Assembly: GCA_016946835.1 (NCBI GenBank)
Contig: JACVTC010000034.1
Span: 1,041,001-1,105,000 of the forward strand
DNA: 64,000 nucleotides
Source of the DNA: Neocallimastix lanati (nom. inval.)
Taxonomy: Eukaryota; Neocallimastigomycota; Neocallimastigomycetes; Neocallimastigales; Neocallimastigaceae
Direction: 5' to 3'
In this document: positions 29,509 through 64,000 of the stretch, piece by piece
Position numbering within the stretch: position 1 is the first letter of the stretch
How the letters are laid out: each line of letters starts with the position of its first letter
Notes under the pieces: model-generated
The model's input: only the letters and a program-made list of their open reading frames with translations
What the model was told of the DNA's origin: nothing
Database searches by the model: none
Made by a program: the position numbers and the translations under genes

Positions 29509-30120
29509 TGTAACGAATCTTAAAAAATTAGAAATTAGAATGCTGGCATAGTGGTTAGTCACTATGACCTCAGCCTGAACCACTAGGGTTTGACTCACAC
29601 CTTTATTAAAATTTTATATCATTTAAATTTTAAAGAATTTTTATACTTCATTTCTGTATTTGTTTCTGTATTTGTTTCTGTATAAATTTCTGTAAAAATT
29701 AACAAAAGAAATTCTTAGAAATTAATAGAAACAAATCAGATAGAAATTCTATTTTAATTTATCTTTTATCATTATTTCCTTTAGATTCTTTTTAACCGAA
29801 AATAATCAATTTTTATGAAACTTTTTAATGATTTTATGGTTTTAAATTTTTATGGATTTAAATTTTGAAAAACTATAAATAGGAGTGAATTTCGCAGCCA
29901 AAAAAAAAAAAAAAATATTCTAAAAATTGTGTTTTTATTAATTATTGAATTAATTAATAAGTAATTCGAAATATTACAATAATTAATCTTTATAATTAAT
30001 ATTTTTAAATTTCTTAATTAATAAAACTATATTTTAAAAAACCAAATTACTTATTAATCAAAAAGTGCTTACCTATTGTGTTACACTCTTTAAAACACGG
30101 ATATTCCAATATTCGTTACA
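29509..30120 (+). repeat. 5' LTR of element C (612 bp)
   Basis: TGTAACGAATC to ATTCGTTACA, with a 10-bp terminal inverted repeat (TGTAACGAAT/ATTCGTTACA). It contains a triple TTTCTGTA(T/A) repeat at 29653-29695 and a TATAAATAGG box at 29874. GCAGCC followed by an A run at 29895-29915 is probably in the transcribed R region. Confidence 0.9.
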
Positions 30121-36278: not shown

Positions 36279-36887
36279 TGTAACGAATCTTAAAAAATTA
36301 GAAATTAGAATGCTGGCATAGTGGTTAGTCACTATGACCTCAGCCTGAACCACTAGGGTTCGACTCACACCTTTACTAAAATTTTATATCATTTAAATTT
36401 TAAAGAATTTTTATACTTCATTTCTGTATTTGTTTCTGTATTTGTTTCTGTATAAATTTCTGTAAAAATTAACAAAAGAAATTCTTAGAAATTAATAGAA
36501 ACAAATCAGATAGAAATTCTATTTTAATTTATCTTTTATCATTATTTCCTTTAGATTCTTTTTAACCGAAAATAAACAATTTTTATGAAACTTTTTAATG
36601 ATTTTATGGTTTTAAATTTTTATGGATTTAAATTTTGAAAAACTATAAATAGGAGTGAATTTCGCAGCCAAAAAAAAAAAAATATTCTAAAAATTGTGTT
36701 TTTATTAATTATTGAATTAATTAATAAGTAATTCGAAATATTACAATAATTAATCTTTATAATTAATATTTTTAAATTTCTTAATTAATAAAACTATATT
36801 TTAAAAAACCAAATTACTTATTAATCAAAAAGTGCTTACCTATTGTGTTACACTCTTTAAAACACGGATATTCCAATATTCGTTACA
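36279..36887 (+). repeat. 3' LTR of element C (609 bp)
   Basis: It matches the 5' LTR with about three substitutions (for example ACTCACACCTTTA(C/T)TAAAAT) and a shorter A run (about 13 against 16). Confidence 0.9.
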
Positions 36888-39445: not shown

Positions 39446-39861
39446 TTTTTTTTTTTTTTTTTTTTTTTTTGGCTGCGAAATTCACTCCTATTTATAGTTT
39501 TTCAAAATTTAAATCCATAAAAATTTAAAACCATAAAATCATTAAAAAGTTTCATAAAAATTGATTATTTTCGGTTAAAAAGAATCTAAAAGAAATAATG
39601 ATAAAAGATAAATTAAAATAGAATTTCTATCTGATTTGTTTCTATTAATTTCTAAGAATTTCTTTTGTTAATTTTTTCAGAAATTTATACAGAAACAAAT
39701 ACAGAAACAAATACAGAAATGAAGTATAAAAATTCTTTAAAATTTAAATGATATAAAATTTTAGTAAAGGTGTGAGTCGAACCCTAGTGGTTCAGGCTGA
39801 GGTCATAGTGACTAACCACTATGCCAGCATTCTAATTTCTAATTATTTAAGATTCGTTACA
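37466..39861 (-). mobile_element. Element D: 3'-truncated sibling of element C
   Basis: The minus strand starts at 39861 with the C-type LTR start TGTAACGAATC. It runs through the LTR to GCAGCC plus A run, then passes directly into the gag ATG at 39445. About 1.06 kb present in C (the rest of the LTR and the whole leader) is missing. RT ends after LRKAGL at about 37466, where copia integrase DNA begins. It is inserted in the RT of element E-prime. Confidence 0.85.
39467..39861 (-). repeat. Partial 5' LTR of element D
   Basis: It matches 29509-29915 of the C LTR, ending at the internal A run. It contains TATAAATAGG (minus strand) and the TTTCTGTA repeats. Confidence 0.85.
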
Positions 39862-41573
39862 ACAACAAATAATATTGGCGCACCAGCAGGGGATTTAGAT
39901 TTCCGAATAAATCCTTTAAGTAGATTTTCTTTTATATATTCCTTAAGTGCTATCATTTCTTTAACTGTTAAGGAATAAATAGGCCCGAAATACAACTGGC
40001 TTCCTGGAACTAAGTCGATTGTCATATCATATAGTCGATGAGGAGGAAGCTTTTCAGCTTTTCTTTCATCAAATATTTCTATAAGGTCTGAATAGTACTT
40101 CTTTAAAATTTCTATTGTTTTTTCTAAGGCCGGATTGTCTTCTACTGGAGTATCTAAGATAGACGCACAAATATCGCTTTCTGAGTCATAAATAATATCA
40201 GTTGAGACTGTTTCTGGTATTATGGTATCCAACCGTGATTCTTCGGATATAGCAGCTGAAATTACTTTTTTTTTAAATTGGAATTTATTGCCTACACATG
40301 ATGGACAATGTTTAGCGCAATAATTTTCAAGGAAGAATATTCTATTTCTTTTATAGTCAATGTAGGGATTGTGAGTTGAGAGCCAGTCCCTACCCAATAT
40401 ACCAGAGATTCCACTTAATTGTATATTTCCAATGCAAAATTCATAAACCTCTTGATGGTCCATGAATTTCAGTTTCAATGGCTTAGATGTCTGTTTTATC
40501 ATCATTGTTTTAGTATTTGGTAATTGGACATTTATCGGGGAGGATAAATCTACAATTGGTATTCTGTGAGCATTAACAAAAGATTTACACAAGAAACTTC
40601 TAGCTGATCCGGAGTCAATAAGCATATTGATTTTAATATTCTTGTTATTAAAGGAAATAATAAATGTTGTAGTCATAGTAGTTGATTTATCTGGTGTATA
40701 GTTCGCAGATAGAACTTCATTGTTATTCTTGTTCTTTAGATTTTTATTAAACTTAAATTTGTTTTCTCTTTTATTATGAAATTTAAATTTGTTTTCTGAT
40801 TTATTTAATTCATGCTTCTTTTTGTTAAATGATTTATTATTTCGCTTTTGGAATGAACCACGTTTATTTCGGATACAACTTTCCAAATAATATTTTTTAT
40901 CTATAGCCATAATCATGTTAGTAGCCTCGAATAGAGTTCTAGGTTTTTCTTGCTTGTCGAACTCCTCTCGAACTTTATCTATAAGTCCCTTTCCGATTAT
41001 ATCAACGCAAACTTCATCTGGCCAACCCAATCTACCTGCGATCTTCCTGAATTCAATGGTGTATTCAGCCACTCCTCCAAGTTGTTGTTGTTTGAGAGCC
41101 CATAGTTTATCCATCAAAACATATTTTTGCTTTCTGTCGTCTCCTCCATCGAAGTTCTTAATTAGAAGTGTTTTAAATTCTTTATAACTAAGTGAATTTA
41201 AAGTACCGTCCACCAGTAAAGACAAAGCCCATTTTCTAGCGGTTCCACTAAGTTTATTCACTAAGAATGTGCTTTTTGATACTTCTTCTTCGAAAGATTT
41301 CGGATGGTGCAAAAAGAACTTCTCACATTGAATGATTATTGCAGGAATATTGTCTTTATTCTCCTCTTCTTGTTCTTTAGTTAGTAATCCATTAGCAGAG
41401 AAGAATGTTGGGATAAGTTCAGTTATTGCGGTAATAAACTTTGATGTTCCTTCAGAATGGAATGGGGAATTATTTTCTTCGAATAAAGATGGATTCATTA
41501 TATTGTCTTCACCATTGTCTGGCTCTACAAAACTCTTATGCTTGGAAGGGCTAATATCACTATTCATTTCCAT
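39862..41573 (-). pseudogene. Element E-prime gag-PR and start of RT (Ty3-type), broken by D
   Basis: The frame of about 570 codons starts at the ATG at 41573. Gag shows STFLVNKLSGTARKWALSLL, VAEYTIEFRKIAGRLGW and a K/N/F-rich basic tail in place of a CCHC knuckle. The protease has MLIDSGSARSF and GILGRDWLSTHNP. RT begins with KLPPHRLYDM and SPAGAPILFV, where the LTR of D (39861) interrupts it. The final codons VVTNLK are LTR sequence. The remainder of RT and the integrase were not found in the window. It is a different Ty3 lineage from C, with LTR family F upstream. Confidence 0.88.
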
Positions 41574-41707
41574 ATTACCTATTTATATTATGCAAAATAT
41601 AATTAGTGCAGTATTAAAATAATAATATTTTATAATTTATATAAATATTTTTTTTTTTTTTTTAAGTTTTAGCAAATATTCTTGATAGCTTGAAGAAGAG
41701 TTATTAT

Positions 41708-42604
41708 TGTTAGAAATTGAAATAAAAATTCTTTTATATCAATTTCTAATCCACAATTTTATTTTAATAATAATATTATTAACTAAAATTGAGAAATTTA
41801 AATTTGTTTTATTAAAATAAAAAGAGTTTATTATAAGAAAATTCAAATAAATTTAATTTATTTTTATTTTTATTTTTTTTTTTATTTTTAAAAAAAAAAA
41901 TAATAAATAAAATTTATTTTAAGATTAAAAAAGAATAAATTTATTGCTATTAATTTGTAAAATTTTATTGTTATTATTATTTTTCTTTTAATAATAACTC
42001 TTAATTTCTAAAAGAACTTAAGAATCTCTATTTATACTTTTTCAAAATTTTAAATTAAATATTGTCTAATCTTAACAAATTTCTTATTTAGGAAAAGATT
42101 AGAAGAAAAACCTAAATAAGTTTCGATTAATATTCTAAACATATTAATCATCGGATCATTAAGTAAAACCGATACCAATCAGTATTCGGGAAAACCTTAA
42201 AGATCGATTTTCTAATTATTTTTATAATAAATAATTTTAATTAAATGTCCAAAATAATAAATAAAAAAAATTAGAAATTGAAAAAATTTGTCCAAATTTA
42301 GAAAAAATTTTTTGTTATGAAAAATTTTAAATAATTTTTGATTATGTCTAAACATTTAAATAATAATTATAACGAATAAATATTAACTAATATTAATAAA
42401 ATTTTTAATTATTAAGTTTAACTAATAATTGGTTAACTACTCCTAATTTTTAAATAATTTTACATGTAATAGTTATAGTACATTGTTACAAAATAAATAA
42501 TGATAATGTAAAAATAATGTATTTCTAATTATTAAGTATTTAATATATTAATACATAATAAGAAATAATAATTAAAATTTAAAAATTTATTATTATTTCT
42601 TACA
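41708..42604 (-). repeat. LTR-F copy serving as 5' LTR of E-prime (897 bp)
   Basis: The minus strand reads TGTAAGAAAT to TTTCTAACA, ending 134 bp before the gag ATG. Homologous copies lie at 48472-49262, 51251-51954 and 51962-59554. It contains two hairpins: 42083-42120 (CTTATTTAGG/CCTAAATAAG) and 42125-42149 (GATTAATAT/ATATTAATC). Confidence 0.8.
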
Positions 42605-43601: not shown

Positions 43602-43606
43602 CAGAA

Positions 43607-44260
43607 TGTCAAAGTTTTTAGATAATTTGGTCTTAACGATTAGGTCAAGATGCCAAATTATAGTAATTAATTAATAATTTAATTTTATTCTTATTTAAAA
43701 CATATTGTTATTAGTAAATTTTATAATTAAGTTTTTATTTAAAATATAAATTTTATTTAATCTTATTAATATTTTATTACATTATTATTTTATATAATTA
43801 TTACTATAATTTAAATTACAATAATCCTACAAAGGATTAATCAAAAGATTTAAACATGTATTTATATAAAATAATTAATTATTAAAATATTAATTATTAA
43901 TATGAATATGTAATAATATTAATATAAGTTTGATATTGATAATGTAAAATAAGATAATAATATAAATATTTAATATAAATAAAATATAAGAATATAATAA
44001 CTAAATATTATATTTTATAATTAAAATATAATATGTAGAAATTAATTTAATGACAATCACGTGTTTACATTATTTAATATATATTAATTTCAATATGTTA
44101 ATAATATTTAGTAATTAGTTGGCCTAGACTAATTCCTAAATATTTTAATAAAGTTAATTTAATAATAATTATTATATTATTATTATTTATTAATATTGAA
44201 ATTCAAATAACTGAATTATCGAAATTGAAATTGAATTGAAATTCAGTTATTATCTTAACA
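43607..44260 (-). mobile_element. Solo LTR, family A (654 bp)
   Basis: TGTCAAAG to CTTAACA, flanked by perfect 5-bp TSDs CAGAA (43602-43606, 44261-44265). Same sequence as the LTR of element A. Confidence 0.92.
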
Positions 44261-44313
44261 CAGAATTTGTTTTTTATTATTTATTTTAATTTAATAATTT
44301 TGTTATTTATAAA

Positions 44314-47163
44314 TGATACGGGCTGGGGTTGAAACACTAAGATATTCAAAACAAAAAAAAATAAATATTAACACATAACTATAAAAATAAGTTTGGAAAC
44401 AAGAAAAAAAATTAAATTTTAAAATATTCTTTATTTAAATTTAAAATTAAAATTATTTGTTCCCCCGTATTAAAAAGAAAGAAATTTATTCTTCTTTTTA
44501 TACTTTTATTTTTATACATTTTATTTATTATTAATATATTCTTTATAAAAAACTATTATAACTATTTTATTTTAATTTTTAACTATTATTTTAAATTATT
44601 TTTTAAAAAAAAATAACATTTATTAAATTAAAATATAAAAAATTAATTTGGAGCTTGTATCACGAAGGGCATTCCGGGCGGTAGCTTCTTCTTGATATTG
44701 TTATTCAGAGAGAGAATTATACAGAATTGATATTTTCTGTATTTTAGATTATTTTTATTATTGGAATTCTTCTGTATTTTAGTTCATTTTTATTTTAATA
44801 AAGATTTAATTTATTTTTAATTTTTGTTTTATTTTTAGTTTATTTCAAAGGTTTTAGAAAATATTATACAGAAACTTATAATTCTGTATTTTATATCAAA
44901 TATTTATTGAAATAGGTTTTTATTATTCTTAATATAAAAATAAGAATTAGTAATGATTTAAATATTATATAATTTTTAATAAGAATATTTAGTAATAATT
45001 TTTATTATATTTAATATTAATAAAATATTTAATAATTATTTTTATTAGATTTGATATTAATAAAAGATTTTAATAAGAATATTTAATAATAATTTTTATT
45101 ATATTTAATATTAATAAAAGAATTTTATAAGAATATTTAATAATAATTTTTATTATAAAAGATTTTAATAAGAATATTTAATAATAATTTTTATTATAAA
45201 AGATTTTAATAAGAATATTTAATAATAATTTTTATTATATTTGATATTAATAAAAGATTTTAATAAGAATATTTAATAATAATTTTTATTATTTTTGATA
45301 TTAATAAAAGAAATTTATAAGAATATTTAATAATAATTTTTATTATATTTAATATTAATAAAAGATTTTTATTAGAATATTTAATAATAATTTTTATTAT
45401 ATTTGATATTAATAAAAGAAATTTATAAGAATATTTAATAATAATTTTTATTATATTTAATATTAATAAAAGAAATTTATAAGAATATTTAATAATAATT
45501 TTTATTATATTTCATATTAATAAAAGAAATTTATAAGAATATTTAATAATAATTTTTATTATATTTAATATTAATAAAAGAATTTTATAAGAATATTTAA
45601 TAATAATTTTTATTATATTTGATATTAATAAAAGAAATTTATAAGAATATTTAATAATAATTTTTATTAGATTTGATATTAATAAAAGCATTTTATAAGA
45701 ATATTTAATAATTTTTATTATAAAAGATTTTAATAAGAATATTTAATAATAATTTTTATTATATTTAATATTAATAAAAGAATTTTATAAGAATATTTAA
45801 TAATTTTTATTATATTTGATATTAATAAAAGATTTTAATAAGAATATTTAATAATAATTTTTATTATATTTAATATTAATAAAAGATTTTTATTAGAATA
45901 TTTAATAATTTTTATTATATTTAATATTAATAAAAGATTTTAATAAGAATATTTAATAATAATTTTTATTATATTTGATATTAATAAAAGATTTTAATAA
46001 GAATATTTAATAATAATTTTTATTATATTTGATATTAATAAAAGATTTTAATAAGAATATTTAATAATAATTTTTATTATGTTTAATATTAATAAAAGAT
46101 TTTAATAAGAAGATTTAATAATAATTTTTATTATATTTGATATTAATAAAAGATTTTAATAAGAATATTTAATAATAATTTTTATTATAAAAGATTTTAA
46201 TAAGAATATTTAATAATAATTTTTATTATATTTAATATTAATAAAAGATTTTTATTAGAATATTTAATAATAATTTTTATTATATTTGATATTAATAAAA
46301 GAAATTTATAAGAATATTTAATAATAATTTTTATTATATTTAATATTAATAAAAGAAATTTATAAGAATATTTAATAATAATTTTTATTATATTTCATAT
46401 TAATAAAAGAAATTTATAAGAATATTTAATAATAATTTTTATTATATTTAATATTAATAAAAGAATTTTATAAGAATATTTAATAATAATTTTTATTATA
46501 TTTGATATTAATAAAAGAAATTTATAAGAATATTTAATAATAATTTTTATTATAAAAGATTTTAATAAGAATATTTAATAATAATTTTTATTATATTTGA
46601 TATTAATAAAAGATTTTAATAAGAATATTTAATAATAATTTTTATTATATTTGATATTAATAAAAGATTTTAATAAGAATATTTAATAATAATTTTTTAT
46701 TAGATTTGATATTAATAAAAGAATTTTATAAGAATATTTAATAATAATTTTTATTATAAAAGATTTTAATAAGAATATTTAATAATAATTTTTATTATAT
46801 TTAATATTAATAAAAGAAATTTATAAGAATATTTAATAATAATTTTTATTATATTTAATATTAATAAAAGAATTTTATAAGAATATTTAATAATAATTTT
46901 TATTAGATTTGATATTAATAAAAGAATTTTATAAGAATATTTAATAATAATTTTTATTATAAAAGATTTTAATAAGAATATTTAATAATAATTTTTATTA
47001 TATTTAATATTAATAAAAGATTTTTATTAGAATATTTAATAATTTTTATTATATTTGATATTAATAAAAGATTTTAATAAGAATATTTAATAATAATTTT
47101 TATTTTATTATTATTAAGAGTATTTAATAGGAAATACAAGGTATTTAGTGACACCCCGTATCA
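44314..47163 (+). mobile_element. R2 element, copy 2 (2.85 kb, terminal TGATACGGG inverted repeats)
   Basis: It starts TGATACGGGCTGGGG and ends CACCCCGTATCA, with flanking TAAA repeats (44310-44313, 47164-47167). The left 670 bp match the inverse of 3540-4190. The right 2.1 kb is a tandem array. It has no ORF. It could be a giant solo LTR (TG...CA ends), a terminal-inverted-repeat transposon, or a satellite-bearing non-autonomous element. Confidence 0.65.
44983..47104. repeat. Tandem array of about forty 54-bp units
   Basis: The unit is roughly TTTTAATAAGAATATTTAAT plus AATAATTTTTATTATATTTG plus ATATTAATAAAAGA. Variants are a shorter 41-bp form lacking ATATTTGATATTAATA, and AAATTTATAAG in place of TTTTAATAAG. 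Variant order repeats over longer stretches (45361-45660 resembles 46240-46540), so blocks of several units were duplicated together. Confidence 0.9.
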
Positions 47164-48417: not shown

Positions 48418-48471
48418 TATTTTCTTATATTTTTAATAATTTATTCTATTTTAGTGAGTAACGTACCATAA

Positions 48472-49262
48472 TGTAATAATTTCTATAAATTATAGAAATT
48501 ATTATTTATAATTAATATTAACTAAACTATTAAGATTAAATAAAAAAGTAAAATAAAAATTAAAATAAAAATAAGAATTTAATACTTATCTTTAAAATTA
48601 GAGTTTATTATAAGAAAATATAATAGACCTTAAATGAATGAGAAATAAAATATGTTTTTATCAAAAGAACTTTATTAATCTATTTTATTATTAAATATTT
48701 TATTATTTTTTTTTTGACAAATTTTAAAATAACTATTTTATATTAATTGAAATATTAATGTCTTTTATTGTTATTATATTTTTCCTAAAATAATAACTCT
48801 TGATTTTCTAAAGACGAAAATCAACAGCTATTTATATTTTTACAAAAATAAATGTATTTTTCTAATCTTAACAATGATTCTTTCCAGAAAAAGATTAGAA
48901 GAAAAAACTGGAAAGATTTTTGATCAATAATCTATACTTATTGATCATCGTGTTATTAAATAAAACCAATTATAATTAATCGGAAAAACTTTAATAACCG
49001 ATTTTAATAACTAAAAGAATTAAAAAGAAAAAGGATAAAAAAGAGAAGGATAAAATAATGCAGAAATTTTATTAAATACATTTTTTCTATGAAATAATAC
49101 AGAAGTTATATTAAATACATTTTTTCATATAACAATTAATACATTAATTAGTATAATTGTTTTTAAATGAAATAAATTTTTTTAAAGAATAATAATTATG
49201 AAATAATTATTAATTAATAAGAAATAGAAATAAATTATAAAAATTTATATCAATTTCTTACA
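48472..49262 (-). mobile_element. Solo LTR-F ending 17 bp before tRNA-Ala copy 1
   Basis: The minus strand starts TGTAAGAAATTGATATAAAT; perfect TSDs CATAA at 48467-48471 and 49263-49267. Hairpins at 48879-48916 (TCTTTCCAG/CTGGAAAGA) and 48921-48947 (TGATCAATAA/TTATTGATCA). Seventeen bases (49263-49279) separate it from the tRNA. Confidence 0.9.
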
Positions 49263-49279
49263 CATAAAAAAATTGTGCT

Positions 49280-49351
49280 GGGGATATAACTCAGTGGTAG
49301 AGTGCTTGCTTTGCATGCAAGAAGCCTCGGGTTCGATCCCCGATATCTCCA
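49280..49351 (+). tRNA. tRNA-Ala (anticodon UGC), copy 1
   Basis: 72 nt with acceptor GGGGATA/TATCTCC, discriminator A, D arm ACTC-AGTGGTA-GAGT, anticodon arm CTTGC-TTTGCAT-GCAAG and T arm TCGGG-TTCGATC-CCCGA. All stems pair and there is no intron. The A box TAACTCAGTGG and B box GGTTCGATCCC are present, and a T run 10 bp downstream would terminate Pol III. Confidence 0.97.
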
Positions 49352-50557
49352 GGGATTAATTTTTTTTGTTAATTTATTTTTTTTATGTAAGAATGTTAGT
49401 GAATAAAACCCCAGGCAGAAATGTGTAACGACGTGTGGAGGGGCGATGCTGTACTGGTATGCCAGTATATCACACTTGACAGTTATATCTGTTATGGTCA
49501 TAATAGGAGATGGATACTCATTATGAATGTCTAAATTATTTATCAATACTTTTAGGAAAATTAATGGGTGATCATAAATCCAGACTAATATTGATATAAT
49601 AAATATTATTATTAGTTTATTTACTATAATATTTTTATTTATTTATTTATTTATTTATTCCTATTTCCTTTAAAATAACTAATGACATGCAATTAATTTT
49701 ATTTTTTTAAATATTATTTATATATAACTATAATAAGATTTATATATTAAAATAATTCAAAGTAAAATATTTTTTAATTTTGATGATATATATTTCATAT
49801 ATAAATTAATACCTAATCATAAAAAAAAATATTTTTTTTTTAAAAAAGTATAATATTATTATTACAAATAATTATAGATAATATCTTGAAATTATTTATA
49901 TAAATAATTTGTTATATATTATAATATAAAATAAAATTTAAAAAATAAAATAAAATATATACTGTTGAAATATGAACATAAAGTATAAATTTAATAAAAT
50001 AAATAAGGATAAAATATAATATAATTATATAATATTTATATAATATAAAGAATTAAAATAAAAAATTAAATATGAAAAATAATAAATGAAATATATAAAA
50101 ATTTGATTAAAATTATGAAAGGAAAACTAATCACATTTAATTTTTTTTTTTTTTTTTTTATAGTTTATATGTATATTTTTATTTTATTCTAAATTTTTTT
50201 ACATACAATATATTTAAAATTATTTAAAAAAAATAAAAAAAAATAAAAATATGAATTATATTATTAGAATTAAAATGATATGAAATATTTACATGAAAGT
50301 ATTTAAAAAAAAATAATAAAATTAATAACAAATATATAATTAATATAATAGATCTTTTATTAATTTCTATTAATAAAATATATAATTTATAAATAAAATA
50401 ATGAATTTTGATAAAAATAATTTAAAAAAATAAAAAGAAAGGGTATATAGTAATTTTTTTCAATTAAAATAATTTAAATATTAAATAAATAAATAACTTT
50501 TTAATTAATTAAAAAGTATTTCTAATTTTAATTTCTAATGTATTATTTATTAATTTA

Positions 50558-51250
50558 TCAAATTTGAATGCTACGAGTATGTTCCTTTTTATCAGGAATA
50601 ATTTTATTGAAAGTCACATCTAAAGCTCCATTCTCCATTTTAGCTGAAATATGTTCTAGATCAATATCTTCGGAAAGCGTTAGTTTTCTTTCAAATTGAC
50701 CATAACTACATTCCATCATTGAATATTTCTGCTCCTTTTTCTTCTCTTTCTCCTTTTTTTTATTTTCTTTATTCTTCTCTTCTTCTTCATGATCTATTTT
50801 CATTTCTGTATCTGTTTCTTTTCCTGATTCTTTTTCTTTTTCCTTTTCTACTTCAACTTCCATTTTATCTTCGTTTTCATTTTCATTTTCATTTTCATTA
50901 TTATTTCCAGAAAGTGTTAAAATACCACCTTCAGATATTTCCATTTTCACTTGATCCTTGGTCATACCAGGTAAATCAGCATGAAGATAATAATGCTTCT
51001 CATCTTCTCCAAAATTAATTTTTGGACAAAAATCATCAAATTTAAAATCAAAGAAATCATGGAAAATTTGCGTTTCAAGATCTTGCTTTGGTCTTTGAAT
51101 AGAAACTTGTTTATCAGTTTTATTTTCATTTTCTTTCTCTTTTTCATTTTTCTTTTCATTTTTCTTTTCACAATTTTCTTGTGATTTATCTTGTAATTGT
51201 TGTTGCTTTAACGATTCCTTTTCTTTATTTTGTTCTTTATTTGAAGTTAA
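50558..51250 (-). pseudogene. HSP20-type small heat shock protein, 5'-truncated, copy 1
   Basis: The frame is open on the minus strand from about 51270 to TGA at 50558 but has no start codon before PGM. The alpha-crystallin domain opens with INFGEDEKHYYLHADLPGM and QVKMEISEGGILTLSG. It resumes after a K/E-rich insert of about 55 residues with YSMMECSYGQFERKLTLSED and MENGALDVTFNKI, ending TRSIQI. Family proteins act as ATP-independent holdases. The N-terminus keeps a K/E/N/Q-rich stretch and LETQIFHDFFDF, then runs into LTR-F sequence at 51251 with an upstream stop, so the true 5' end is lost. The charged insert sits between the beta-5 region and the dimer-loop side, where most small HSPs have a short loop. 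Confidence 0.85.
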
Positions 51251-51954
51251 TGTAAACTTTAGTTTTATTTATTTTGTACATTTAAAAGAACAATTAATAA
51301 GTTTCTGTATTTTTTAAAGATAGTTTTATGTTAATAAGTTTAGATTAGACTTTAAAAATAATATTTAGAAAAATAGAATAATTTAGATCATTCCGGTTAT
51401 TATTTATTTTTCCTTTTATTTGATAATCTAAATTAAAATTTAGAAAATCGATATATTAAGGTTTTATCCAAATATAAAATAATATATTTGATTTTACTTA
51501 ATATATACGATGATCGATATGAATAGAATATCGATCAAAACTTATCTAGTTTTTTCTTCTAATCTTTTTCTAGATAAGATAATTTTTAAGATTAGAAAAA
51601 CTTTTTATTTAACTTTATTTTAATAAAAAAAATATAAAAAGGGCTATTGATTTCTCTTTAAGAAATCAAGAGTTATTATTATAAAAAGATAGTTATAATA
51701 ATAACAATATTACATTTTAAACTTTAATAAATTAATAAAATATTTTATTTAAAAACATATTCTTTAAAAAAACCAACTTAAACTTTATACAAATATTTCT
51801 TCCTTTAGTTTTTGTGTTGTTATTATAATTAATTTTATAATAAACTCTTTTTAGGTAAAATTTTTATTTTTATTTTATTTCTCAACTTAATGAATTAGTC
51901 ATTAAGTTGAAGTTAATAATCATATTTAGTGATAGAACTTAGTATGATTATTAC
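51251..51954 (+). mobile_element. LTR-F copy ending 17 bp before the site of tRNA-Ala copy 2
   Basis: TGTAAACTTT to ATTATTACA. Its right end is followed by CATCGA, which continues after the next LTR-F insertion as the 16 bp before tRNA copy 2, so its original distance to the tRNA was 17 bp. Hairpins at 51511-51537 (TGATCGATAT/ATATCGATCA) and 51541-51578 (CTTATCTAG/CTAGATAAG). No TSD was found at the left end, which also cuts the HSP20 remnant. Confidence 0.75.
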
Positions 51955-52881
51955 ACATCGATGTAAGAATCTATAATTATTTTTAAATAAAATAATTATA
52001 TTTTCTTAGTTAAGTTATAATTATAACTTTATTTAATTATATAATATTTATTCATTTAAATATTATTAATAATTTATTAAACTCAATATTAAATAATCAT
52101 TAATTTAATACAACAAATTTATTTAATTAATTATTATTTATACATTTATAAATAATTATAGTTTATTTAATTATATATTTAATTATAAAATTTATTAGTC
52201 TTAGTTTATTTATTTAATTAAATTGTAAACAAATATATTATGTATTCTAATTTGTACTTAATAATGTATTCTGTATTTTGTTTATTAATATCATTATTAT
52301 GTTATTTTCCTTATTTGTAAATTTATGATTTTATGGTCGAAATATCTTTTATTATTTTATTCTTTTATTTTTGATCAATTAAATTAGATTAGCTAATCGG
52401 TCAATTAGGGTTTTTCCCAATCACTTTTTAAAAGTAATTGGTTTTACCTAATTGATACGATGATCGATATGGATAGAATATCGATCAAAAATCTTATCTA
52501 GGTTTTTCTCTCTAATCTTTTCCTAGATAAGAGATTTGTTAAGATTAGAAAACATTTTTTAATTTAACCTTATTTTTCAAAAAAGTATAAATAAGGCTCT
52601 TGAATTCTCTTTGAGAAATCAAGAGTTATTATTATAACAATTATAATATAGTAATAGCATTAATAAATTTTTTATATTTCTATTTTAATAAAGTAAGTTT
52701 TAATAAAAAACAAATTTTAAAAAAAAAAAATAAAATAATCTTTTCTCTTTGACAATTTTGTGTTATTAGTTTATTATATAATTAGTTATAATAAACTCTC
52801 TCTTATAGAAGATAAGTATATTTATCTTTTTTTTGTTTTCTCAATTTAATAATAATTATTATTTAGTTATTATTAAGTTGT

Positions 52882-53592
52882 TGTTGAAATTATAACTGAA
52901 TTGAAATCTCAATTTCAGTTATTTACATTTCAATAATTAAAAATATTATTTATTTAATTATAAATAATATATATATTTAAATAATTAATAATTAATATAA
53001 ATTCTTGTTTAATATTTAAAGGGTTATCTTAGGCCTAATAATTCTGAGAATATTAATAAATAAGGTTTATATTAATAATTAATTTCAATGATACATTTGA
53101 CGTCACGTGTATTTTATTTATATTATGTTTTTACATATGTTTACAACATATCTATATTAAATTTAATTATTCAAATTAATTATATAATTAAATTTATCCT
53201 TATATTTTATTATTATTTATATTACTATATTATTACTATCCTATAATTAAATATTATTATTATGTAACTTACAAAGTATAAAAGAAAGATGTAAAAATCT
53301 ATCTTTTATGTTCTTTGTAAGGTTATTGTGAAATTACCTTAATAGTAATATATTATAGATATTTTATTATTAAATAAAATCAATAAATTTAAAATCAAAT
53401 TAATTTGATAATTCTAATTATCAAAGTTTATTATAAATAAATTTTCATTAAACTAAACATTTAAATATTTATTATTATTATTATATATCTATATAGTATA
53501 TTACTATATAGACATATCGACTTAGTGAATATTTTTATTAAAACATATTATTTTATTTACATTTAAATTATAAATTATTTCAAAATCTTAAC
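52882..53592 (+). repeat. 5' LTR of element E (711 bp)
   Basis: TGTTGAAATT to ATCTTAACA. It contains the palindrome ATAACTGAA...TTCAGTTAT at its start, GACGTCACGTG at 53099-53109 and a long hairpin at 53266-53324 (ACTTACAAAG and inverse CTTTGTAAGGT). It is homologous to the solo LTR at 47683-48417. Confidence 0.85.
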
Positions 53593-53627
53593 AATAACCT
53601 TACCCTAGTTTTAGTTGCTACCTTGAT

Positions 53628-54701
53628 ATGTCTTACTATACGAACGTCTGGGCTAGTGAAATACCTGACATTGCACCAATGTCAGAAGTTAATAAATTAA
53701 GGTCTGACGCCCAAGTTACCGTATCCGAATTGGCTTCTTCTGTTAATGATAGTTTTTTATTAAAAGAAGATTTTAATAATTATAACCAGGACTTACAGAA
53801 AAAACTTTATACATTTTACAGAGATAACAAGAATATTATTAATCAACTTTCTAATTTAACTAAAATATTTAATGAAAAATTAGATATAAAAATTGGTACC
53901 AACGATGAACCCTCTTCCAGCCAAACTGTACTACAAAATCAAGATGATAACGCATCTATTTCTACAAGACGTGATGCAGACAATGATGTTATCATGAAAA
54001 ATAACTATTCTAATAACTTACAACAAGTACCTGAACCTGGATTCTTTTCTGGAAACACTAATGACACAGATTTATTTTGTCAATTATGTGAAGATACTTT
54101 CTCAACTTATCCCAACTTAGGATTACCAGAAGAAGTAAAAATAAACTTTGTCAAATCTCGTTTGAGAGACGGTGCAAGAAATTGGTATATTGCTACCTAT
54201 AACGAGAACAATCATCCAGGAACACTAAAGAAATTATTAAGTGATATAAAGAAAACTTTTACGAATGTTGCAAGTAAAAAATTGGCTAAAATCCAATTAG
54301 TAAAATTAAAACATTCGTATGGGAAAATAAATGATTATATAGAAAAGTTTAGAACGTTAACTACTGGTCTGTCTTGGGATGAAGAAGCTTTAGTCTTATT
54401 TTTCTATAATGGACTTCACCCAAAGTTCCAAGAAGAAATAGATAAAATGGAAGAATTCCCTACAAAGTTTGGTGATATTTATACTAAGTGCATCTTATTT
54501 GAAAATAATATTAAAAGTAAGGACCAATTAAGAAATAATATTGGTAATAAAAATTTGAGAAAGAAACATTCAAGCCCACATGTAAACAATAGCAAGAATT
54601 ATAATAATAATAATTATTATTATACTAAAAATAAATCTAGCAATAATTATTTTAATAATAATAACAATAATAATAATCAACATAATAATCAAAAAAACTA
54701 A
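53628..54701 (+). CDS. Element E Gag
   Basis: 357 codons starting 35 bp after the LTR. The N-terminal 130 residues are helical and polar (SELASSVNDSFLLKEDFNNY). The capsid-like retrotransposon gag domain spans about 140-300, with EPGFFSGNTNDTDLFCQLCE, FVKSRLRDGARNWY, INDYIEKFRTLTTGLSWDEE and LFFYNGLHPKFQEEIDK. The tail is basic and N-rich, with no CCHC knuckle. Gag assembles the particle that packages the RNA. The last sense codons, AAA AAC before TAA, form a -1 slippery heptamer with the preceding A. Confidence 0.88.
   Translation: MSYYTNVWASEIPDIAPMSEVNKLRSDAQVTVSELASSVNDSFLLKEDFNNYNQDLQKKLYTFYRDNKNIINQLSNLTKIFNEKLDIKIGTNDEPSSSQTVLQNQDDNASISTRRDADNDVIMKNNYSNNLQQVPEPGFFSGNTNDTDLFCQLCEDTFSTYPNLGLPEEVKINFVKSRLRDGARNWYIATYNENNHPGTLKKLLSDIKKTFTNVASKKLAKIQLVKLKHSYGKINDYIEKFRTLTTGLSWDEEALVLFFYNGLHPKFQEEIDKMEEFPTKFGDIYTKCILFENNIKSKDQLRNNIGNKNLRKKHSSPHVNNSKNYNNNNYYYTKNKSSNNYFNNNNNNNNQHNNQKN
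54692..54698 (+). promoter_or_regulatory. Candidate -1 ribosomal frameshift site (A_AAA_AAC)
   Basis: The heptamer is in the correct register of the gag frame and lies directly before the gag stop TAA (54699-54701). Slipping back by one gives AAA AAA CTA ATT GAT, which is open into the protease frame starting with the ATG at 54716. The site type is known from retroviral gag-pro junctions. A downstream pseudoknot was not assessed. Confidence 0.7.
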
Positions 54702-54715
54702 TTGATGGACTTCAA

Positions 54716-55300
54716 ATGGAGTCCAGAACATCAAAAAATTTAAAAACAATTTATTATAATTTTCCTACACTTGATTCAATCAATGAATCAAATCTCCCAT
54801 CTACATTCCTTTTATTCAAATCTTATATTCCTATTAAATTCTTAAATAATTTTTCAATTAAAAATGAAAAAATTCAAAAATTAACTTCTGAATCTATGTT
54901 AGATTCAGGATCCTTTTGCAATTTTATCACAGAAAAATTAGCAAATAAATTAAAACTAAATATTCATAAAACAAAAAATAAAATCCTAGTTAAAGGTATT
55001 TCAGGCAGAACTACCAAATTAGATCAATTTGTTTGGTTAAATTTTCAAATTAAATTTTTTAAAAATAATAAATTTTATTTTCAAGATTTTAAAGAAAAAT
55101 TTTTAATCTCAAATTGTATTCCTACTGATTTACTTTTTGGAAATCAGTTTATTAGGAAATTCAAAATACATTACAATTATAAAAATAATACCTTATATTC
55201 TTTTTTAAATTATAATTCTTTAAATGATCATAAAAATAAATCCATAAAATATAAGGGAAATAATTTTTATTTAAACTCGTTGAAAAAGAAAAATTTTTAA
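54716..55300 (+). CDS. Element E aspartic protease
   Basis: 194 codons from the ATG, also open upstream to the frameshift site. The catalytic motif SMLDSGSFCNFI has its aspartate at residue 63. It is followed by the flap-like GISGRTTKLDQ and the LLFGNQFIRKF segment typical of retropepsins of Ty3 elements. The C-terminus becomes K/N-rich and ends at TAA. It would release Gag and Pol products. Probably made only as a Gag fusion. Confidence 0.8.
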   Translation: MESRTSKNLKTIYYNFPTLDSINESNLPSTFLLFKSYIPIKFLNNFSIKNEKIQKLTSESMLDSGSFCNFITEKLANKLKLNIHKTKNKILVKGISGRTTKLDQFVWLNFQIKFFKNNKFYFQDFKEKFLISNCIPTDLLFGNQFIRKFKIHYNYKNNTLYSFLNYNSLNDHKNKSIKYKGNNFYLNSLKKKNF

Positions 55301-55418
55301 AAATAAATTTTTTAAAAGAAAAATAAAAAATAAATTTTATTATAAAAAATTTTCAAAAAATCGATCAAAAAATAATTCAAAAAATATCTCCAAAAAATTT
55401 AATTTAAAAAATTTAAAA
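55301..55418 (+). other. Frame-broken K/N/F-rich linker between protease and RT of element E
   Basis: Stops occur in all three frames over this A/T-homopolymer stretch. The pol frame differs from the protease frame, so at least one indel or recoding event is needed. Slippage decay in A runs is the simple explanation. Confidence 0.55.
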
Positions 55419-58313
55419 AATTTTTCAAAAAATCCAAAGTTTAATAAATATAAAAATTCTATTAATAAAAATTCTAAAATTTATATATATGTAAAATATT
55501 TATATAAATCTAAAAGTAAATTTTCTTCCAAAAAATTTAACAAAAATCATCGAGATTTATATAATAATAAAAAAGAATTTAGTTATAATTTTTTAATATA
55601 TTGTTTTCTTTCAACTAAAGATAAAGTTGAAATTGAAAATGAGGAACCAAAAATAGAAGAAATTCCTCATCAATATCAAGATTTAGCAATCGTATTTAGC
55701 AAAAAAGAGGCAGATAAATTACCTCCTCACCGTTTAACCGACTGTAAGATTGTTTTAGAAAAAGACGCTACACTCCATTACGGCCCAATTTATCCATTAA
55801 CTGAAGAAGAATCACAAGTTCTTAAGGACTATATAAAAGAAAATTTAGAAAAAGGATTTATTAGACCATCAGAATCTCCTGCTGGATATCCTGTCCTTTT
55901 TCAAAAGAAAAAAGATGGTTCCCTTCGGTTATGTGTAGACTATAAAAAATTAAATGCAGTAACTATAAGAAATTCATATCCTCTCCCTCTAATAACAGAT
56001 ATAATAGAAAAAGTAAAGGGAGCAAAATATTTTACGAAATTGGATTTACGTTCAGCTTATAATTTAATAAGAATAAAAGAAGGTGATGAATATAAAACTG
56101 CGTTTAGAACTAAATATGGTCATTATGAATATTTAGTTATGCCGTTTGGATTAAAAAATGCGCCTGCCACTTTCCAATCATTTATTAACTCTATTCTTAG
56201 ACCATACTTGGAAAAATGTGTGATCTTATATTTAGATGATATTTTAATTTATTCCAAAGATTTAGAGGAGCATCATAATCAAGTCAGAAACGTCCTTCAA
56301 ACTTTAATTAATAATAATTTATATGCAAAATTAGAAAAATGTGAATTTGACCAGAACCAAGTTGAATTTTTAGATTACATTTTATCTGGTGATGGTGTAT
56401 CTACTGATCCAAAGAAAATTAAATCAATAGAAGAGTGGCCAAGACCAGAAAATTTAAAAGATGTTCAAAGATTTATTGGCCTATGTAATTACTATAGAAG
56501 ATTTGTTAAAGATTTTGCAAAAATTGCAAAACCCTTACATAATTTAACAAGGAAAAATATTAAATTTTTATGGACAAATGAATGTGAAAATGCTTTTAAG
56601 GAATTAAAGAAAAGATTAATTACTTCTCCAATTCTACTTCATCCTGATATTACAAAACCTTTTATAGTAGAATGTGATGCAAGTAATTATGCTATTGGTG
56701 CTGTTCTATCTCAAAGAGATAAAGATAATAATTTACATCCAGTAGCATATTATTCTAGAAGTTTACTAAACGCCGAAATAAATTATACAATTACTGATAA
56801 AGAACTACTTGCTATAAGGGATGCTTTTATTACTTGGAGACATCTACTTCTTGGTGCTAAATACCAGATTACTGTTTATACAGATCATAGGAACTTAATA
56901 TACACATTAGGAGGAAAGGTTGCAAATCAAAGACAACACAGATGGTACCTTTTCTTCCAAGAATATAATTTCATAATAAAGTATAGACAGGGAAACAAAA
57001 ACGGAAAACCTGACAGTCTATCTAGAAGACCTGACTATATTAAAAACAACACTGAAGAAAAACCTGAAAATATTTTAGACATTAAAAATGTTAAAGAAAT
57101 TCCATGTTATGTTAGTATTGTGAGTGACCTTTTAGAAAGAATTATTGATGCTACCAAGTCTGACGCTACAGCTGAGGATATTCAACTTTACTTTAGTCCT
57201 CAAAATGTAAAAAATGATATGTCTTATAAGCCCTTCAGAAAAATGGAAAAGTTTAAATTAAAGGACAATTTAATATTTTATAATAATTTAGTCTATATTC
57301 CTGAAGTTCTCCGATTAGAAATATTAACAAAATATCATGAAAAGCCCGCAGCCGGTCATTTAGGAATTAGAAGAACTTTAGAGTTAATAACAAGAAACTT
57401 TTGGTGGCCTAAAATAAAAGAAGATGTAACCAAATATGTAAACTCTTGTCAATCCTGTGCAAGAAACAAAATGAATAGACACAGAAAATATGGTCTTCTA
57501 CAACCTTTGGATACTCCCGAAAGACCTTGGAAATCTATTGAAATCGACTTTCTATGCGGTCTTCCTGATTCTAAAGGATATACAGTAATAATGGTAGTTG
57601 TCGATCGTTTTTCTAAAATGATCCACTTAATTCCCTTTAAACAAATACCTGATGCAAAACAAACTGCTAAGGCTTTTATGAATAATATCTTTAAACTACA
57701 TGGTTTACCTCAAGATATTTACACAGACAGAGGATCACAATTTACAAGTGCTCTTTGGAATGAATTTATGCACTTATTAAAAATTAAAAATAATATAGCT
57801 ACCACAGATCATCATGAAACCGTCGGACAAGTTGAAAGGTGTAACTCTTTTATTGAACAATATCTTAGGGCTTATTCAAGAGCTTATTATCATGATGACT
57901 GGATAGATTGGATCTACCTTGCAGAATTTGCATATAATAATTCGGTTAACGAATCTACTAAGGAAACTCCTTTCTTTATAAATTATGGTTTCCATCCTTC
58001 CATGGACGAATTCTTTTTATTACCTCAAATGGATACTAATTTTAAATATATAAAAAATGTAAATACTAGTTTTAATCACATTAAAGACGTCTTACTACGT
58101 TCCAAAGAATTATATAAAAGGCATGCTGATAAGAAAAGATTAGAACCTCCTGTTTTTAAAGAAGGTGACTTAGTATGGGTTCAAACTCCTCCTTCTCTTA
58201 ATATCGAAGATTATTCTAAATTATCACCTTGTAAGTACGGACCCTATAAAGTACTTGAAGCTTTAGATAATAATAATTATAAAATAGATTTAAAAAAGAT
58301 CTCCTTTCCCTAA
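55419..58313 (+). pseudogene. Element E pol: RT, RNase H and integrase
   Basis: The frame is open from about 55419 without an ATG, as expected for a translated-through domain. RT starts with KLPPHRLTDCKIVL, then SPAGYPVLFQKKKDGSLRLC. The active site YLDD is at 56229-56240. RNase H has VECDASNYAIGAVLSQRDKD and TDKELLAI. The integrase zinc finger includes AAGHLGIRRTLEL and NSCQSC. The catalytic D, D, E lie at 57546, 57726 and 57834 (X59, X35), all present. The GPY-like motif CKYGPYKVLEALDNNNYKID precedes the stop TAA at 58311. A shift near 58308 puts the tail in another frame. Confidence 0.88.
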
Positions 58314-58601
58314 ACACCATCCAATATTCCATATATCCGAGCTCGAACCTTTCATTCCTACTCCTCCAGAATATAGAAAAAGAAGATCTCATAATGAATC
58401 TATTAAGGATATTATAGAAATAGCAGGATTTAGGACTAATTATAAGAAAAAATGTTATGAATATCGTGTAAGGTATAAATATAAAAATTCATACGATTGG
58501 GTTCCTTCTGAAGAAGTTGAAAATAACCCAAGAAATCAAGACATTTATTTATTATATTTAAAGAATGGAAGGAAATTTACTTCGATTGCATATAATTAAA
58601 A
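58314..58601 (+). pseudogene. Element E pol tail, chromodomain-like, out of frame
   Basis: The alternative frame reads HHPIFHISELEPFIPTPPEY, then DIIEIAGFRTNYKKKCYEYR, RYKYKNSYDWVPSEEVENN and YLLYLKNGRKF, ending at TAA. HISELEPF continues the integrase end. The I..I...R....YEY.VRYK....DWVP pattern is that of a diverged chromodomain. Confidence 0.7.
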
Positions 58602-58612
58602 AAAAAATAAAA

Positions 58613-58659
<47 letters not shown>

Positions 58660-59041
58660 AAAATCTATTTTTTATTATTAATTTAACTTTTACTTTATTA
58701 TTATCTATTTTTTTAGTTAATTTTAATTTTTCAATATTTCTAAAATGAAATTGCAATTTCAAAATTTCAAAATTCAAAAATTCAAAAGATATAGCTATAT
58801 TACACTCTTAACAATCAATTTATAATTCAACATAATCAAAATTTTATAAATTATTATAATTTTCATTTTTTTAAAATTTAATGCAACAAATTAAGCAGTT
58901 AATTGAAATTAAATTTCAAAATTTCAATTTCAAAAATTCTATATCAAATTCATTCAAAAATGGTACCATTATATTCACAACTATCAATTTTATTAACAAA
59001 ATTTTAATTTTAATAAATTTTAGAAATTTCAAAATTTTAAT

Positions 59042-59099
59042 GAAATGGTCACTTGAAATGGGGTTTCCTATAAAAATTTAAAAGGACTCAAGTGACCTT
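59042..59099 (+). other. Inverted repeat near the 3' end of element E
   Basis: GGTCACTTGA (59047) pairs with TCAAGTGACC (59089). Element A has the equivalent pair GTCACTT/AAGTGAC at about 210-263 (minus strand) at a similar distance from its PPT. Confidence 0.6.
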
Positions 59100-59183
59100 C
59101 TTCCTTTGAAATTAAAAAATTTTTTAATTTATGAAATTTCAAAATTTTTTTTAATAAAAATTTAGACCTCCGTATCGTTACAC

Positions 59184-59208
59184 AAAAATCGTCTTGAATC
59201 CGATTTTT
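59184..59208 (+). other. Hairpin before the polypurine tract of element E
   Basis: Stem AAAAATCG (59184-59191) and CGATTTTT (59201-59208) with the 9-nt loop TCTTGAATC, followed by the PPT ATGGGAGGG and the 3' LTR at 59221. Confidence 0.65.
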
Positions 59209-59220
59209 ATGGGAGGGCGT

Positions 59221-59504
59221 TGTTGAAATTATAACTGAATTGAAATCTCAATTTCAGTTATTTACATTTCAATAATTAAAAATATTATTTATTTAATTAT
59301 AAATAATATATATATTTAAATAATTAATAATTAATATAAATTCTTGTTTAATATTTAAAGGGTTATCTTAGGCCTAATAATTCTGAGAATATTAATAAAT
59401 AAGGTTTATATTAATAATTAATTTCAATGATACATTTGACGTCACGTGTATTTTATTTATATTATGTTTTTATATATGTTTACAACATATCTATATTAAA
59501 TTCA
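59221..59504 (+). repeat. 3' LTR of element E, shortened (284 bp)
   Basis: It matches 52882-53163 almost perfectly up to CTATATTAAATT, then ends in CA followed by the TSD GTTGT. About 427 bp found in the 5' LTR is missing, so a deletion removed the rest while sparing the end. Confidence 0.8.
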
Positions 59505-59570
59505 GTTGTAGTTAATAATTTAATTCTAATTAATTTTATAATTAAATTATTACAATCGAAAAATTGTACT

Positions 59571-59642
59571 GGGGATATAACTCAGTGGTAGAGTGCTTGC
59601 TTTGCATGCAAGAAGCCTCGGGTTCGATCCCCGATATCTCCA
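59571..59642 (+). tRNA. tRNA-Ala (anticodon UGC), copy 2
   Basis: Identical in sequence to copy 1 over all 72 nt, with A and B boxes intact. The sequence outside the tRNA has diverged (for example the terminator region AGGGATAAATTTATTTTG), so the tRNA has probably been held constant by selection. Confidence 0.97.
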
Positions 59643-61356: not shown

Positions 61357-61402
61357 ACCAAATATAATCTTAACAAATAATGTTAAGATTATATTTGGTT
61401 TT
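61354..61402. repeat. Head-to-head LTR-G ends: 22-bp perfect palindrome with AATAA spacer
   Basis: 61354-61375 ends CTTAACA and is the exact inverse of 61381-61402, which starts TGTTAAG. The 5-bp spacer AATAA has the length of a TSD. It suggests two LTR-G ends placed at one target, the left one reduced to its terminal 22 bp. Confidence 0.8.
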
Positions 61403-61901: not shown

Positions 61902-61906
61902 AGTAA

Positions 61907-63339: not shown

Positions 63340-63344
63340 TTAAT

Positions 63345-63862: not shown

Positions 63863-64000
63863 TTAATTGTTAAATTAAAATTGAGTGTTTAGGTAAGATT
63901 CTTGCTATATCTTTCCAAGTTTTGGGTTAAATTGGTCAGGTCAAGATGTTTTTATTAATTGTAACAATTAATTAAATTTAAATAATAAATAACACACACA

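What the first reader, a model, noticed from the sequence alone, without database searches (positions are those of the whole stretch)
48467..59642. Three LTR-F insertions stop 16-17 bp upstream of tRNA-Ala genes, in both orientations
Seen directly: the minus-strand LTR-F (TSD CATAA) leaves 17 bp before tRNA copy 1. The plus-strand LTR-F at 51962/59554 (TSD ATCGA) leaves 16 bp before tRNA copy 2. The earlier plus-strand LTR-F ending at 51954 is followed by CATCGA, whose continuation gives 17 bp to the same tRNA. Opposite orientations and different TSDs mean independent events. Established: yeast Ty3 integrates next to Pol III start sites about 16-19 bp before mature tRNAs. Inference: the E-prime/LTR-F lineage here uses the same targeting, and tRNA copy 2 was hit twice in succession.
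Basis: partly seen in the sequence, partly recalled or inferred. Interest (0 to 1): 0.88.

Follow-up and report, generated by a model that had tools for sequence, protein, structure and literature searches.

The report
Retrotransposons queue beside tRNA genes
In the genome of a gut fungus, one family of jumping genes inserts almost exactly 16 base pairs in front of tRNA genes and a second about 66 base pairs in front, so insertions pile up there in layers; the first habit is known from yeasts and slime moulds, but here a second position is used as well and tRNA-like start signals inside other jumping genes are also hit.

Summary
Confirmed and extended. The window lies in a 199-Mb genome, most likely of the anaerobic gut fungus Neocallimastix lanati. 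Both tRNA-Ala genes have LTR edges 16-17 bp upstream, in both orientations, two with matching 5-bp TSDs. The three "LTR-F" are related subfamilies; one is 5'-truncated without a TSD pair. Among the 40 best-matching LTR-F copies of the genome (29 independent insertions with both flanks read), 13 end 15-18 bp before a tRNA gene (8) or a tRNA-like A-box unit (5); 3 are separated from one by an LTR-sized insert; 13 are unresolved in 1.5-kb flanks. The LTR-F integrase ends just after its SH3 domain and lacks the chromodomain that positions Ty3. A chromovirus control (11 distinct flanks) shows neither. In a tRNA-Arg/Asn sample chosen without regard to LTRs, 24 of 37 loci have an LTR-tip-like end at 12-18 bp. 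Four of the tRNA-like targets lie in LTR-like sequences related to that chromovirus. Tethering to TFIIIB is inferred. New variant of a known kind.

The parts
48467..49267 (-). F-superfamily solo LTR (48472-49262, 791 bp) with TSD CATAA on both sides; edge 17 bp before tRNA copy 1
   Evidence: sequence; about 70-74% similar to the other two LTRs
49280..49351 (+). tRNA-Ala(TGC) copy 1
50558..51268 (-). HSP20 gene fragment (matches residues 161-399 of a 400-aa Neocallimastix HSP20), cut at the LTR junction; part of a duplicated tRNA-HSP20 unit
51224..51955 (+). 5'-truncated F3-subfamily LTR; only the 3' edge is intact, 17 bp before tRNA copy 2 in the empty site
51957..52881 (+). TSD ATCGA (51957-51961) and left part of solo LTR-F (from 51962), up to and including the E' TSD GTTGT
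   Evidence: 39 further copies at 98-99% among those scored
52882..59504 (+). Nested Ty3/gypsy element E' (5' LTR 52882-53593; 3' LTR 59221-59504, shorter by about 430 bp), TSD GTTGT; its end is 66 bp before tRNA copy 2
53598..54701 (+). E' gag ORF
   Evidence: Pfam Retrotrans_gag
54689..55300 (+). E' protease ORF
   Evidence: Pfam Peptidase_A2B
55284..58313 (+). E' pol ORF (RT, RNase H, integrase, SH3; no chromodomain match in Pfam)
59510..59559 (+). right end of LTR-F (to 59554) and TSD ATCGA 59555-59559; 16 bp to tRNA copy 2
59571..59642 (+). tRNA-Ala(TGC) copy 2
29509..30120 (+). 5' LTR of chromovirus C with tRNA-like Pol III boxes: A box 29544-29554, B box from 29587 (spacing 43)
36279..36887 (+). 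3' LTR of chromovirus C with the same A box (from 36314) and B box (from 36357)
43602..44265 (+). solo E'-like LTR (43607-44260) with TSD CAGAA on both sides, about 50 bp from the end of another repeat (nearly the same place as E' in L066)
   Evidence: read by eye
39846..42604 (-). fragment of an F-superfamily element (gag-protease ORF and LTR-like sequence)

Best explanation
LTR-F is a young, high-copy Ty3/gypsy family whose integrase is guided to the Pol III initiation complex, most likely TFIIIB on DNA, and joins its ends about 16 bp upstream of the mature RNA start (cuts at about -16 and -12, roughly 2-6 bp upstream of transcription start if that start lies ~10 bp before the mature tRNA). 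Family E' is guided to the other side of the same complex, 64-67 bp upstream. Because the position is fixed by the gene and not by sequence, each new insertion lands between the gene and the previous one and re-duplicates nearly the same five bases. This builds layered stacks. Shown: positions, TSDs, orientation, nesting, lack of a chromodomain, controls. Inferred: TFIIIB as tether, the CTD/SH3 or the short tail as contact, order within stacks.
For: LTR-F: of 29 independent insertions with both flanks read (from 40 copies scored out of 3477 first-look candidates), 13 have a tRNA or A-box unit at 15-18 bp: Trp 16, 16; Ala 16, 16; Met 16; Thr 17; Glu 18; Arg 15; tRNA-like 16, 16, 16, 17, 17 (both Ala and L025 counted by eye). 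All 11 A-box hits that the script found within 5-45 bp of an LTR-F edge lie at 15-18 (one is a duplicate site). TSDs differ, orientation 7:6. Stacks with a re-used TSD: CTGTG three times in L032/L027, ACAAT in L021. E': 64, 65, 66, 66, 66, 67 bp to Pol III units; the tip motif lies 45-54 bp from E' 16 times in 37 non-redundant flanks against about 1.8 expected. tRNA samples: tip at 12-18 bp in 24 of 37 non-redundant tRNA-Arg/Asn loci and in 11 of 17 non-redundant tRNA-Ala loci, these from 20 fetched out of the 26 that had no TTACA within 30 bp and were not already known; 25 of 60 loci share their upstream end with a tRNA of another isotype. LTR-F pol aligns to Ty3 (7q5b) up to chain residue 1447 of 1547 and then ends. 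LTR pairs of one element differ by 0-1 substitutions over 963-970 matched bases.
Against: 13 of the 29 LTR-F insertions show no Pol III unit within the 1.5 kb read; stacking is the likely reason but was not followed out. One E' stack followed further (C167) reached more LTRs, not the tRNA. E' loci L045, L056, L060 and L070 show neither a tip nor a Pol III unit at the expected place. The 5-letter tip motif could partly be a Pol III promoter motif rather than an LTR end. Two of 11 control flanks of element C have the motif 6-7 bp away. Only the best-matching (youngest) copies were scored. No biochemical data. The stated confidence is for the two fixed positions; for TFIIIB as the tether I would say about 0.65.
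Confidence: 0.9

Rival explanations
1. LTR-tRNA units were copied together by segmental duplication, so the constant spacing is inherited rather than made by repeated targeting.
For: The tRNA-HSP20 unit in the window is duplicated, tRNA-Arg genes lie in a long series on C555, and some sampled loci are near-copies.
Against: LTR-F sits before six tRNA isotypes and three kinds of tRNA-like units with different TSDs, different downstream sequence and both orientations. Near-copies were merged before counting; they were not merged.
Confidence: 0.04
2. Integration follows a DNA sequence preference (for example A+T-rich ..TATCA/TTACA motifs) and Pol III genes happen to carry it.
For: Most sites have TTACA/TATCA/TACCA beside the insertion (26 of the 29 rows on at least one side, against 4.6% per random 14-mer).
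Against: In many loci the motif is the end of a repeat shared between different tRNA genes (25 of 60); the TSD letters vary freely; the distance is fixed to the A box in 11 of 11 script hits; the E' distance is fixed to the gene at 64-67; element C in the same A+T-rich genome shows no Pol III unit at its edges.
Confidence: 0.05
3. E' recognises LTR tips (about 50 bp inside another LTR) rather than the Pol III gene.
For: The tip lies 45-54 bp from E' in 16 cases; the window copy, L049 and L057 are inside LTR-F or LTR-F-like ends.
Against: At the six sites where a Pol III unit is still adjacent, the distance to the gene is 64-67; tips themselves lie about 14-17 bp from genes, so 50 follows from 66 minus 16. 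All six also have a tip-like end or LTR in between, so the two readings are not fully separated.
Confidence: 0.15
4. The tether is Pol III itself or TFIIIC rather than TFIIIB.
For: Ty1 integrase binds Pol III subunits through a short C-terminal segment (abstract of PMC10050235 in the listing); LTR-F lacks the Ty3 chromodomain that contacts Brf1 (PMC8632968, passages).
Against: Single-site precision like Ty3 rather than a 1-kb window like Ty1 (Table 1 of PMC5911963, section 11 read).
Confidence: 0.25

Closest known systems
Ty3 (Saccharomyces cerevisiae, Ty3/gypsy)
   Same: pol order RT-RNase H-integrase, 5-bp TSD, single position at the Pol III start (-6/-2 relative to TSS in PMC8632968, passages)
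   Different: Ty3 integrase has a vestigial chromodomain that contacts Brf1 and DNA and acts as a ruler; LTR-F pol ends 9 aa after the part that aligns to Ty3, before it
DGLT-A (Dictyostelium, Ty3/gypsy)
   Same: no chromodomain, average 15 bp upstream of mature tRNA (PMC5006619, passages)
   Different: compact amoeba genome, 20 insertions in D. discoideum; here a 199-Mb genome with 3477 first-look LTR candidates and stacking
Tj1 (Schizosaccharomyces japonicus)
   Same: targets Pol III genes a few bp upstream
   Different: Tj1 lands 5-11 bp from mature tRNA and only in forward orientation (PMC4600332, passages); LTR-F 15-18 bp, both orientations
TRE5 / NLTR-B (dictyostelid L1-type elements)
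   Same: an upstream position like E' (40-54 and 39-64 bp; Table 1, PMC5911963)
   Different: they are non-LTR elements; E' is Ty3/gypsy with 5-bp TSD at 64-67 bp
Helenus / TRIMp3 and Cassandra
   Same: tRNA- or 5S-like Pol III promoter inside LTRs; Helenus occurs in fungi (PMC10886601, abstract and passages)
   Different: those are short non-autonomous elements; here the A/B boxes are in LTRs of a coding chromovirus (element C)

Membership tests
Ty3/gypsy (Metaviridae) LTR retrotransposon, for LTR-F | gag and pol with RT-RNase H-integrase order between LTRs | tested here: met
   L041 ORFs 3093-4601 and 4546-7260, Pfam order
Ty3/gypsy (Metaviridae) LTR retrotransposon, for LTR-F | LTRs TG..CA with 5-bp TSD | tested here: met
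   an exact 5-bp TSD in 22 of 29 rows (one row is a duplicate site), 4 bp in 1 (L038), none by exact match in 6 (L003, L007 and L023 differ by one letter; L021, L028, L039 do not match)
Pol III-targeting Ty3-like element, for LTR-F | insertions concentrated at one position next to Pol III start sites | tested here: met
   13 of 29 direct at 15-18 bp
Ty3 itself (with chromodomain ruler) | vestigial chromodomain after the integrase CTD | tested here: not met
   LTR-F pol stops 9 aa after the part aligned to Ty3 residue 1447 of 1547 and 9 bp before the 3' LTR; 18 of 18 measurable clade members (22 listed) end 12-22 aa after the CTD motif
Ty3-like mechanism | integrase binding to TFIIIB | not testable with these tools
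   no binding data
Pol III-targeting element, for E' | one preferred distance from Pol III genes | tested here: met
   six sites at 64-67 bp, tip peak at 45-54 bp; few sites, and some loci show neither
Helenus (tRNA-like sequence in LTRs), for element C | A and B boxes at tRNA spacing inside the LTR | tested here: met
   spacing 43 in three C LTR copies and 43-44 in T1/T2 copies (one T1 copy has an A box that the script did not match)
Helenus (tRNA-like sequence in LTRs), for element C | short, non-autonomous TRIM | tested here: not met
   between its LTRs C has gag, RT, integrase and a chromodomain; the pol reading frame of the window copy is not continuous

The most novel reading that the evidence does not exclude
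In this fungus the Pol III initiation complex is the address for a whole community of retrotransposons. One lane at -16 (several F subfamilies and other repeat families) and one at -66 (E') bracket TFIIIB, insertions queue so that each tRNA gene carries a dated stack, precision is kept without the chromodomain ruler of Ty3, and a chromovirus whose LTRs imitate a tRNA promoter draws insertions onto itself, which shows that those LTR promoters assemble Pol III factors in the cell.
Probability: 0.55. Interest if true: 0.85.

Novelty: new variant of a known kind. Interest (0 to 1): 0.72.

Why it matters
Table 1 of the 2018 review (PMC5911963, section 11 read) lists Pol III-targeting Ty3/gypsy elements only from ascomycete yeasts and a dictyostelid, and PMC5006619 (abstract and passages) explains tRNA targeting as a means to colonise compact genomes. 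Here it occurs in an early-diverging fungal phylum with a large, A+T-rich genome that carries very many LTRs, so compactness cannot be the whole reason. The family keeps Ty3-like precision without Ty3's ruler domain, which makes the ruler model testable. The second lane at -66 by an LTR element may mark the far edge of the complex. Insertions into LTR-like sequences with tRNA-like boxes are indirect in vivo evidence that these sequences recruit Pol III factors.

Tried and rejected
Rejected: E' as the body of LTR-F (nested, TSD GTTGT). Rejected: a first reading of the tRNA-like units T1/T2 as SINEs; T2 starts with the C-type LTR end in L036/L037 and matches the inside of the C LTR, and T1 is similar to T2. 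Rejected: two A+T-rich unit types (TGATACGGG.., TGGTAGACTCGG..) as Pol III genes; I saw no A/B boxes at tRNA spacing, and Rfam at E up to 1 gave one tRNA only in the 17 loci searched; I treat them as ends of other repeats. I first took the 63 tRNA rows for tRNA-Ala; the 40 that I read begin like tRNA-Arg(TCT). The B-box column is empty through a slip in my script; B boxes rest. Papers: searches (1 paper; 1; 20 of 34 listed; 12 of 330 listed; 10 of 916 listed) showed no paper on Pol III targeting in anaerobic fungi; since most hits were not listed, this is weak evidence of absence. Not done: copies beyond the 40 scored per family; 5S and U6 genes; structure prediction.
Full report
SETTING. The window is C268:1041001-1105000 of a 199-Mb assembly of 762 contigs. 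The HSP20 fragment beside tRNA copy 1 matches proteins of Neocallimastix; two of the matches are named Neocallimastix lanati and lie on a contig of 1,469,177 bases, the length of C268 (taxonomy). I infer that the host is this anaerobic gut fungus (Neocallimastigomycota).

OBSERVATION. The minus LTR leaves 17 bp to tRNA copy 1; plus LTR-F leaves 16 bp to copy 2; the edge at 51955 leaves 17 bp in the empty site. The last is a 5'-truncated LTR of another subfamily joined to a truncated HSP20 gene, so it has no TSD pair, and a later rearrangement is likely. LTR-F at 51962-59554 is a solo LTR holding an E' element with TSD GTTGT.

LTR-F GENOME-WIDE. Searching the first 915 bases of LTR-F gave 3477 first-look candidates, of which 40 were scored, all 98% or more alike; 30 came as loci and 10 were fetched. 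They form 32 insertions by my reading. One (L024/L014, with L013 in between) duplicates L011/L012 (flanks 399/400 and 400/400 alike), L026 shows one outer flank and L034 lacks a located 3' end; these three are dropped, leaving 29 (28 of the 29 rows, plus the window copy). Of 29: 8 end next to a tRNA gene (Ala 16, Ala 16, Trp 16, Trp 16, Met 16, Glu 18, Thr 17, Arg 15 bp, counted from the A box), 5 next to a tRNA-like A-box unit (16, 16, 16, 17, 17), 3 are separated from such a unit by about one LTR length (L021, L030, L032), and 13 are unresolved within 1.5 kb (L019, L025 and the window copy counted by eye). ARAGORN found 11 tRNAs in the 40 loci; 8 lie 14-18 bp from LTR-F by its own start positions, which can be one base off (one of the 8 is the duplicate site), and 3 lie at 758, 808 and 1213; all 11 have the 5' end towards the LTR. 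Orientation is 7 same, 6 opposite. LTR pairs of full-length copies differ by 0-1 substitutions and 0-4 gap positions, so these insertions are recent.

CONTROLS. Element C (chromovirus with a chromodomain): 20 LTR 5' edges fetched, 8 internal, 12 outer (11 distinct); no tRNA in any of the 20 pieces, and A-box-like hits only at 26 (L083) and 72 bp (L078); two outer edges have the 5-letter tip motif 6-7 bp away. Only about 220 bp of one flank was examined for C. E': tRNAs in 30 loci lie at 66, 66, 779 and 1294 bp, none at 12-18.

THE SECOND LANE. E' has a 713-bp LTR. Where a Pol III unit is adjacent, the E' edge is 66 (window tRNA-Ala), 66 (tRNA-Trp, L061), 66 (tRNA-Cys, L063 and the like site L145), 65 (tRNA-Ala, L147/L148, from the coordinates), 67 (tRNA-Arg, an E'-like LTR end in the near-identical L104/L105/L113, counted once) and 64 bp (a T2-type promoter, L139) away. 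In 37 non-redundant flanks the tip motif peaks at 45-54 bp (16 against about 1.8 expected), as expected if the -16 lane was occupied when E' came. L045, L056, L060 and L070 show neither. Of the ten further copies, two had a 3' edge that my script did not locate and several had no tip or A box.

tRNA GENES. Of 63 tRNA rows I took the upstream 140 bp of 40, all beginning like tRNA-Arg(TCT). Twelve are the second gene of a tRNA-Asn/tRNA-Arg pair. After merging near-copies, 24 of 37 loci have a tip-like motif 12-18 bp before the first tRNA; the other 7-bp bins counted hold 0-6. Of 37 tRNA-Ala starts I read 20, all from the 26 left after taking out the ten and C36:345802; 11 of 17 distinct loci have the motif at 12-18. 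In 25 of 60 loci the upstream end that stops there is shared with a tRNA of another isotype (near-copies not merged), so several repeat families end at this position. The motif alone may overstate LTR ends.

STACKS. L032/L027: CTGTG, LTR-F, CTGTG, another LTR, CTGTG, then a tRNA-like unit. L021: ACAAT before LTR-F and after a second LTR, then tRNA-Ala. In L002, L030 and L026 a second F-type LTR adjoins LTR-F within a few bases. C167 against C2: the same E' site, but C167 carries a 7.0-kb element with identical 790-bp LTRs, and a further LTR, where C2 has tRNA-Trp; the tRNA on C167 was not reached.

PROTEIN. LTR-F pol (L041:4546-7260) has RT, RNase H, integrase and a Tf2-type SH3 domain and ends 9 bp before the 3' LTR. 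It aligns to Ty3 (7q5b) up to residue 1447 of 1547. PMC8632968 (passages read) places the Ty3 chromodomain after the CTD and calls it the ruler. Of 22 listed proteins at 68% identity or more, the 18 measurable ones end 12-22 aa after the CTD motif, against a median of 89 aa in the 50 measurable of 98 others, three of which are also under 30. The LTR-F clade is one branch (15 of 78 rows, support 100; FastTree with long-branch warnings). E' relatives also have short tails, so loss of the chromodomain alone does not set the position. The C-terminal tail of the 7.0-kb element also looks short.

LTRs WITH tRNA-LIKE PROMOTERS. Element C LTRs hold an A box and a B box 43 bp apart; T1 and T2, LTR-like sequences related to it, keep boxes 43-44 apart although the letters between differ. 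LTR-F inserted 16-17 bp upstream of these units in four places (L004/L006, L025, L016, L036/L037); in L036/L037 it sits inside an otherwise intact C-type LTR start. A fifth tRNA-like unit, L017/L022, is of another kind. Helenus elements with tRNA-like LTRs are known from fungi but are short and non-coding (PMC10886601, abstract and passages).

MECHANISM. Shown: distances, TSDs, nesting, missing chromodomain. From established work: TFIIIB marks the start of Pol III genes and tethers Ty3. Inferred: LTR-F uses TFIIIB from the downstream side, E' from the upstream side. [quoted passage not shown] PMC5006619 gives about 12), which are the Ty3 values in PMC8632968.

Noticed in passing
window 29509-30120, 36279-36887: LTRs of a coding chromovirus contain tRNA-like A and B boxes at tRNA spacing as well as a TATA-like box further on.
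   Followed up: partly
window 61359-61906 and 63340-63883: A foldback or DNA element with 548-bp inverted repeats (96% alike) cuts the second HSP20 copy.
   Followed up: no
L092-L095, L097-L099, L106, L109, L110, L129, L130: tRNA-Asn and tRNA-Arg genes form close pairs (12 of 40 tRNA-Arg loci); tip-like ends lie before the pair.
   Followed up: partly
G000:C555:170732-399007: 34 tRNA rows on one strand (31 with the same top score), often about 0.5 kb apart; those read begin like tRNA-Arg(TCT).
   Followed up: no
window 3214-3608 and 44864-47050: 54-bp minisatellite arrays in opposite orientation, about 42 kb apart.
   Followed up: no
window 23773-24648 and 25973-26869: Two ORFs of about 290-300 aa that look similar by eye; the first has no Pfam match.
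   Followed up: no
L044, L046, L059; L011/L012 and L024/L014: Several E' and LTR-F sites occur on near-identical contigs, which looks like haplotype copies or duplications kept in the assembly.
   Followed up: partly
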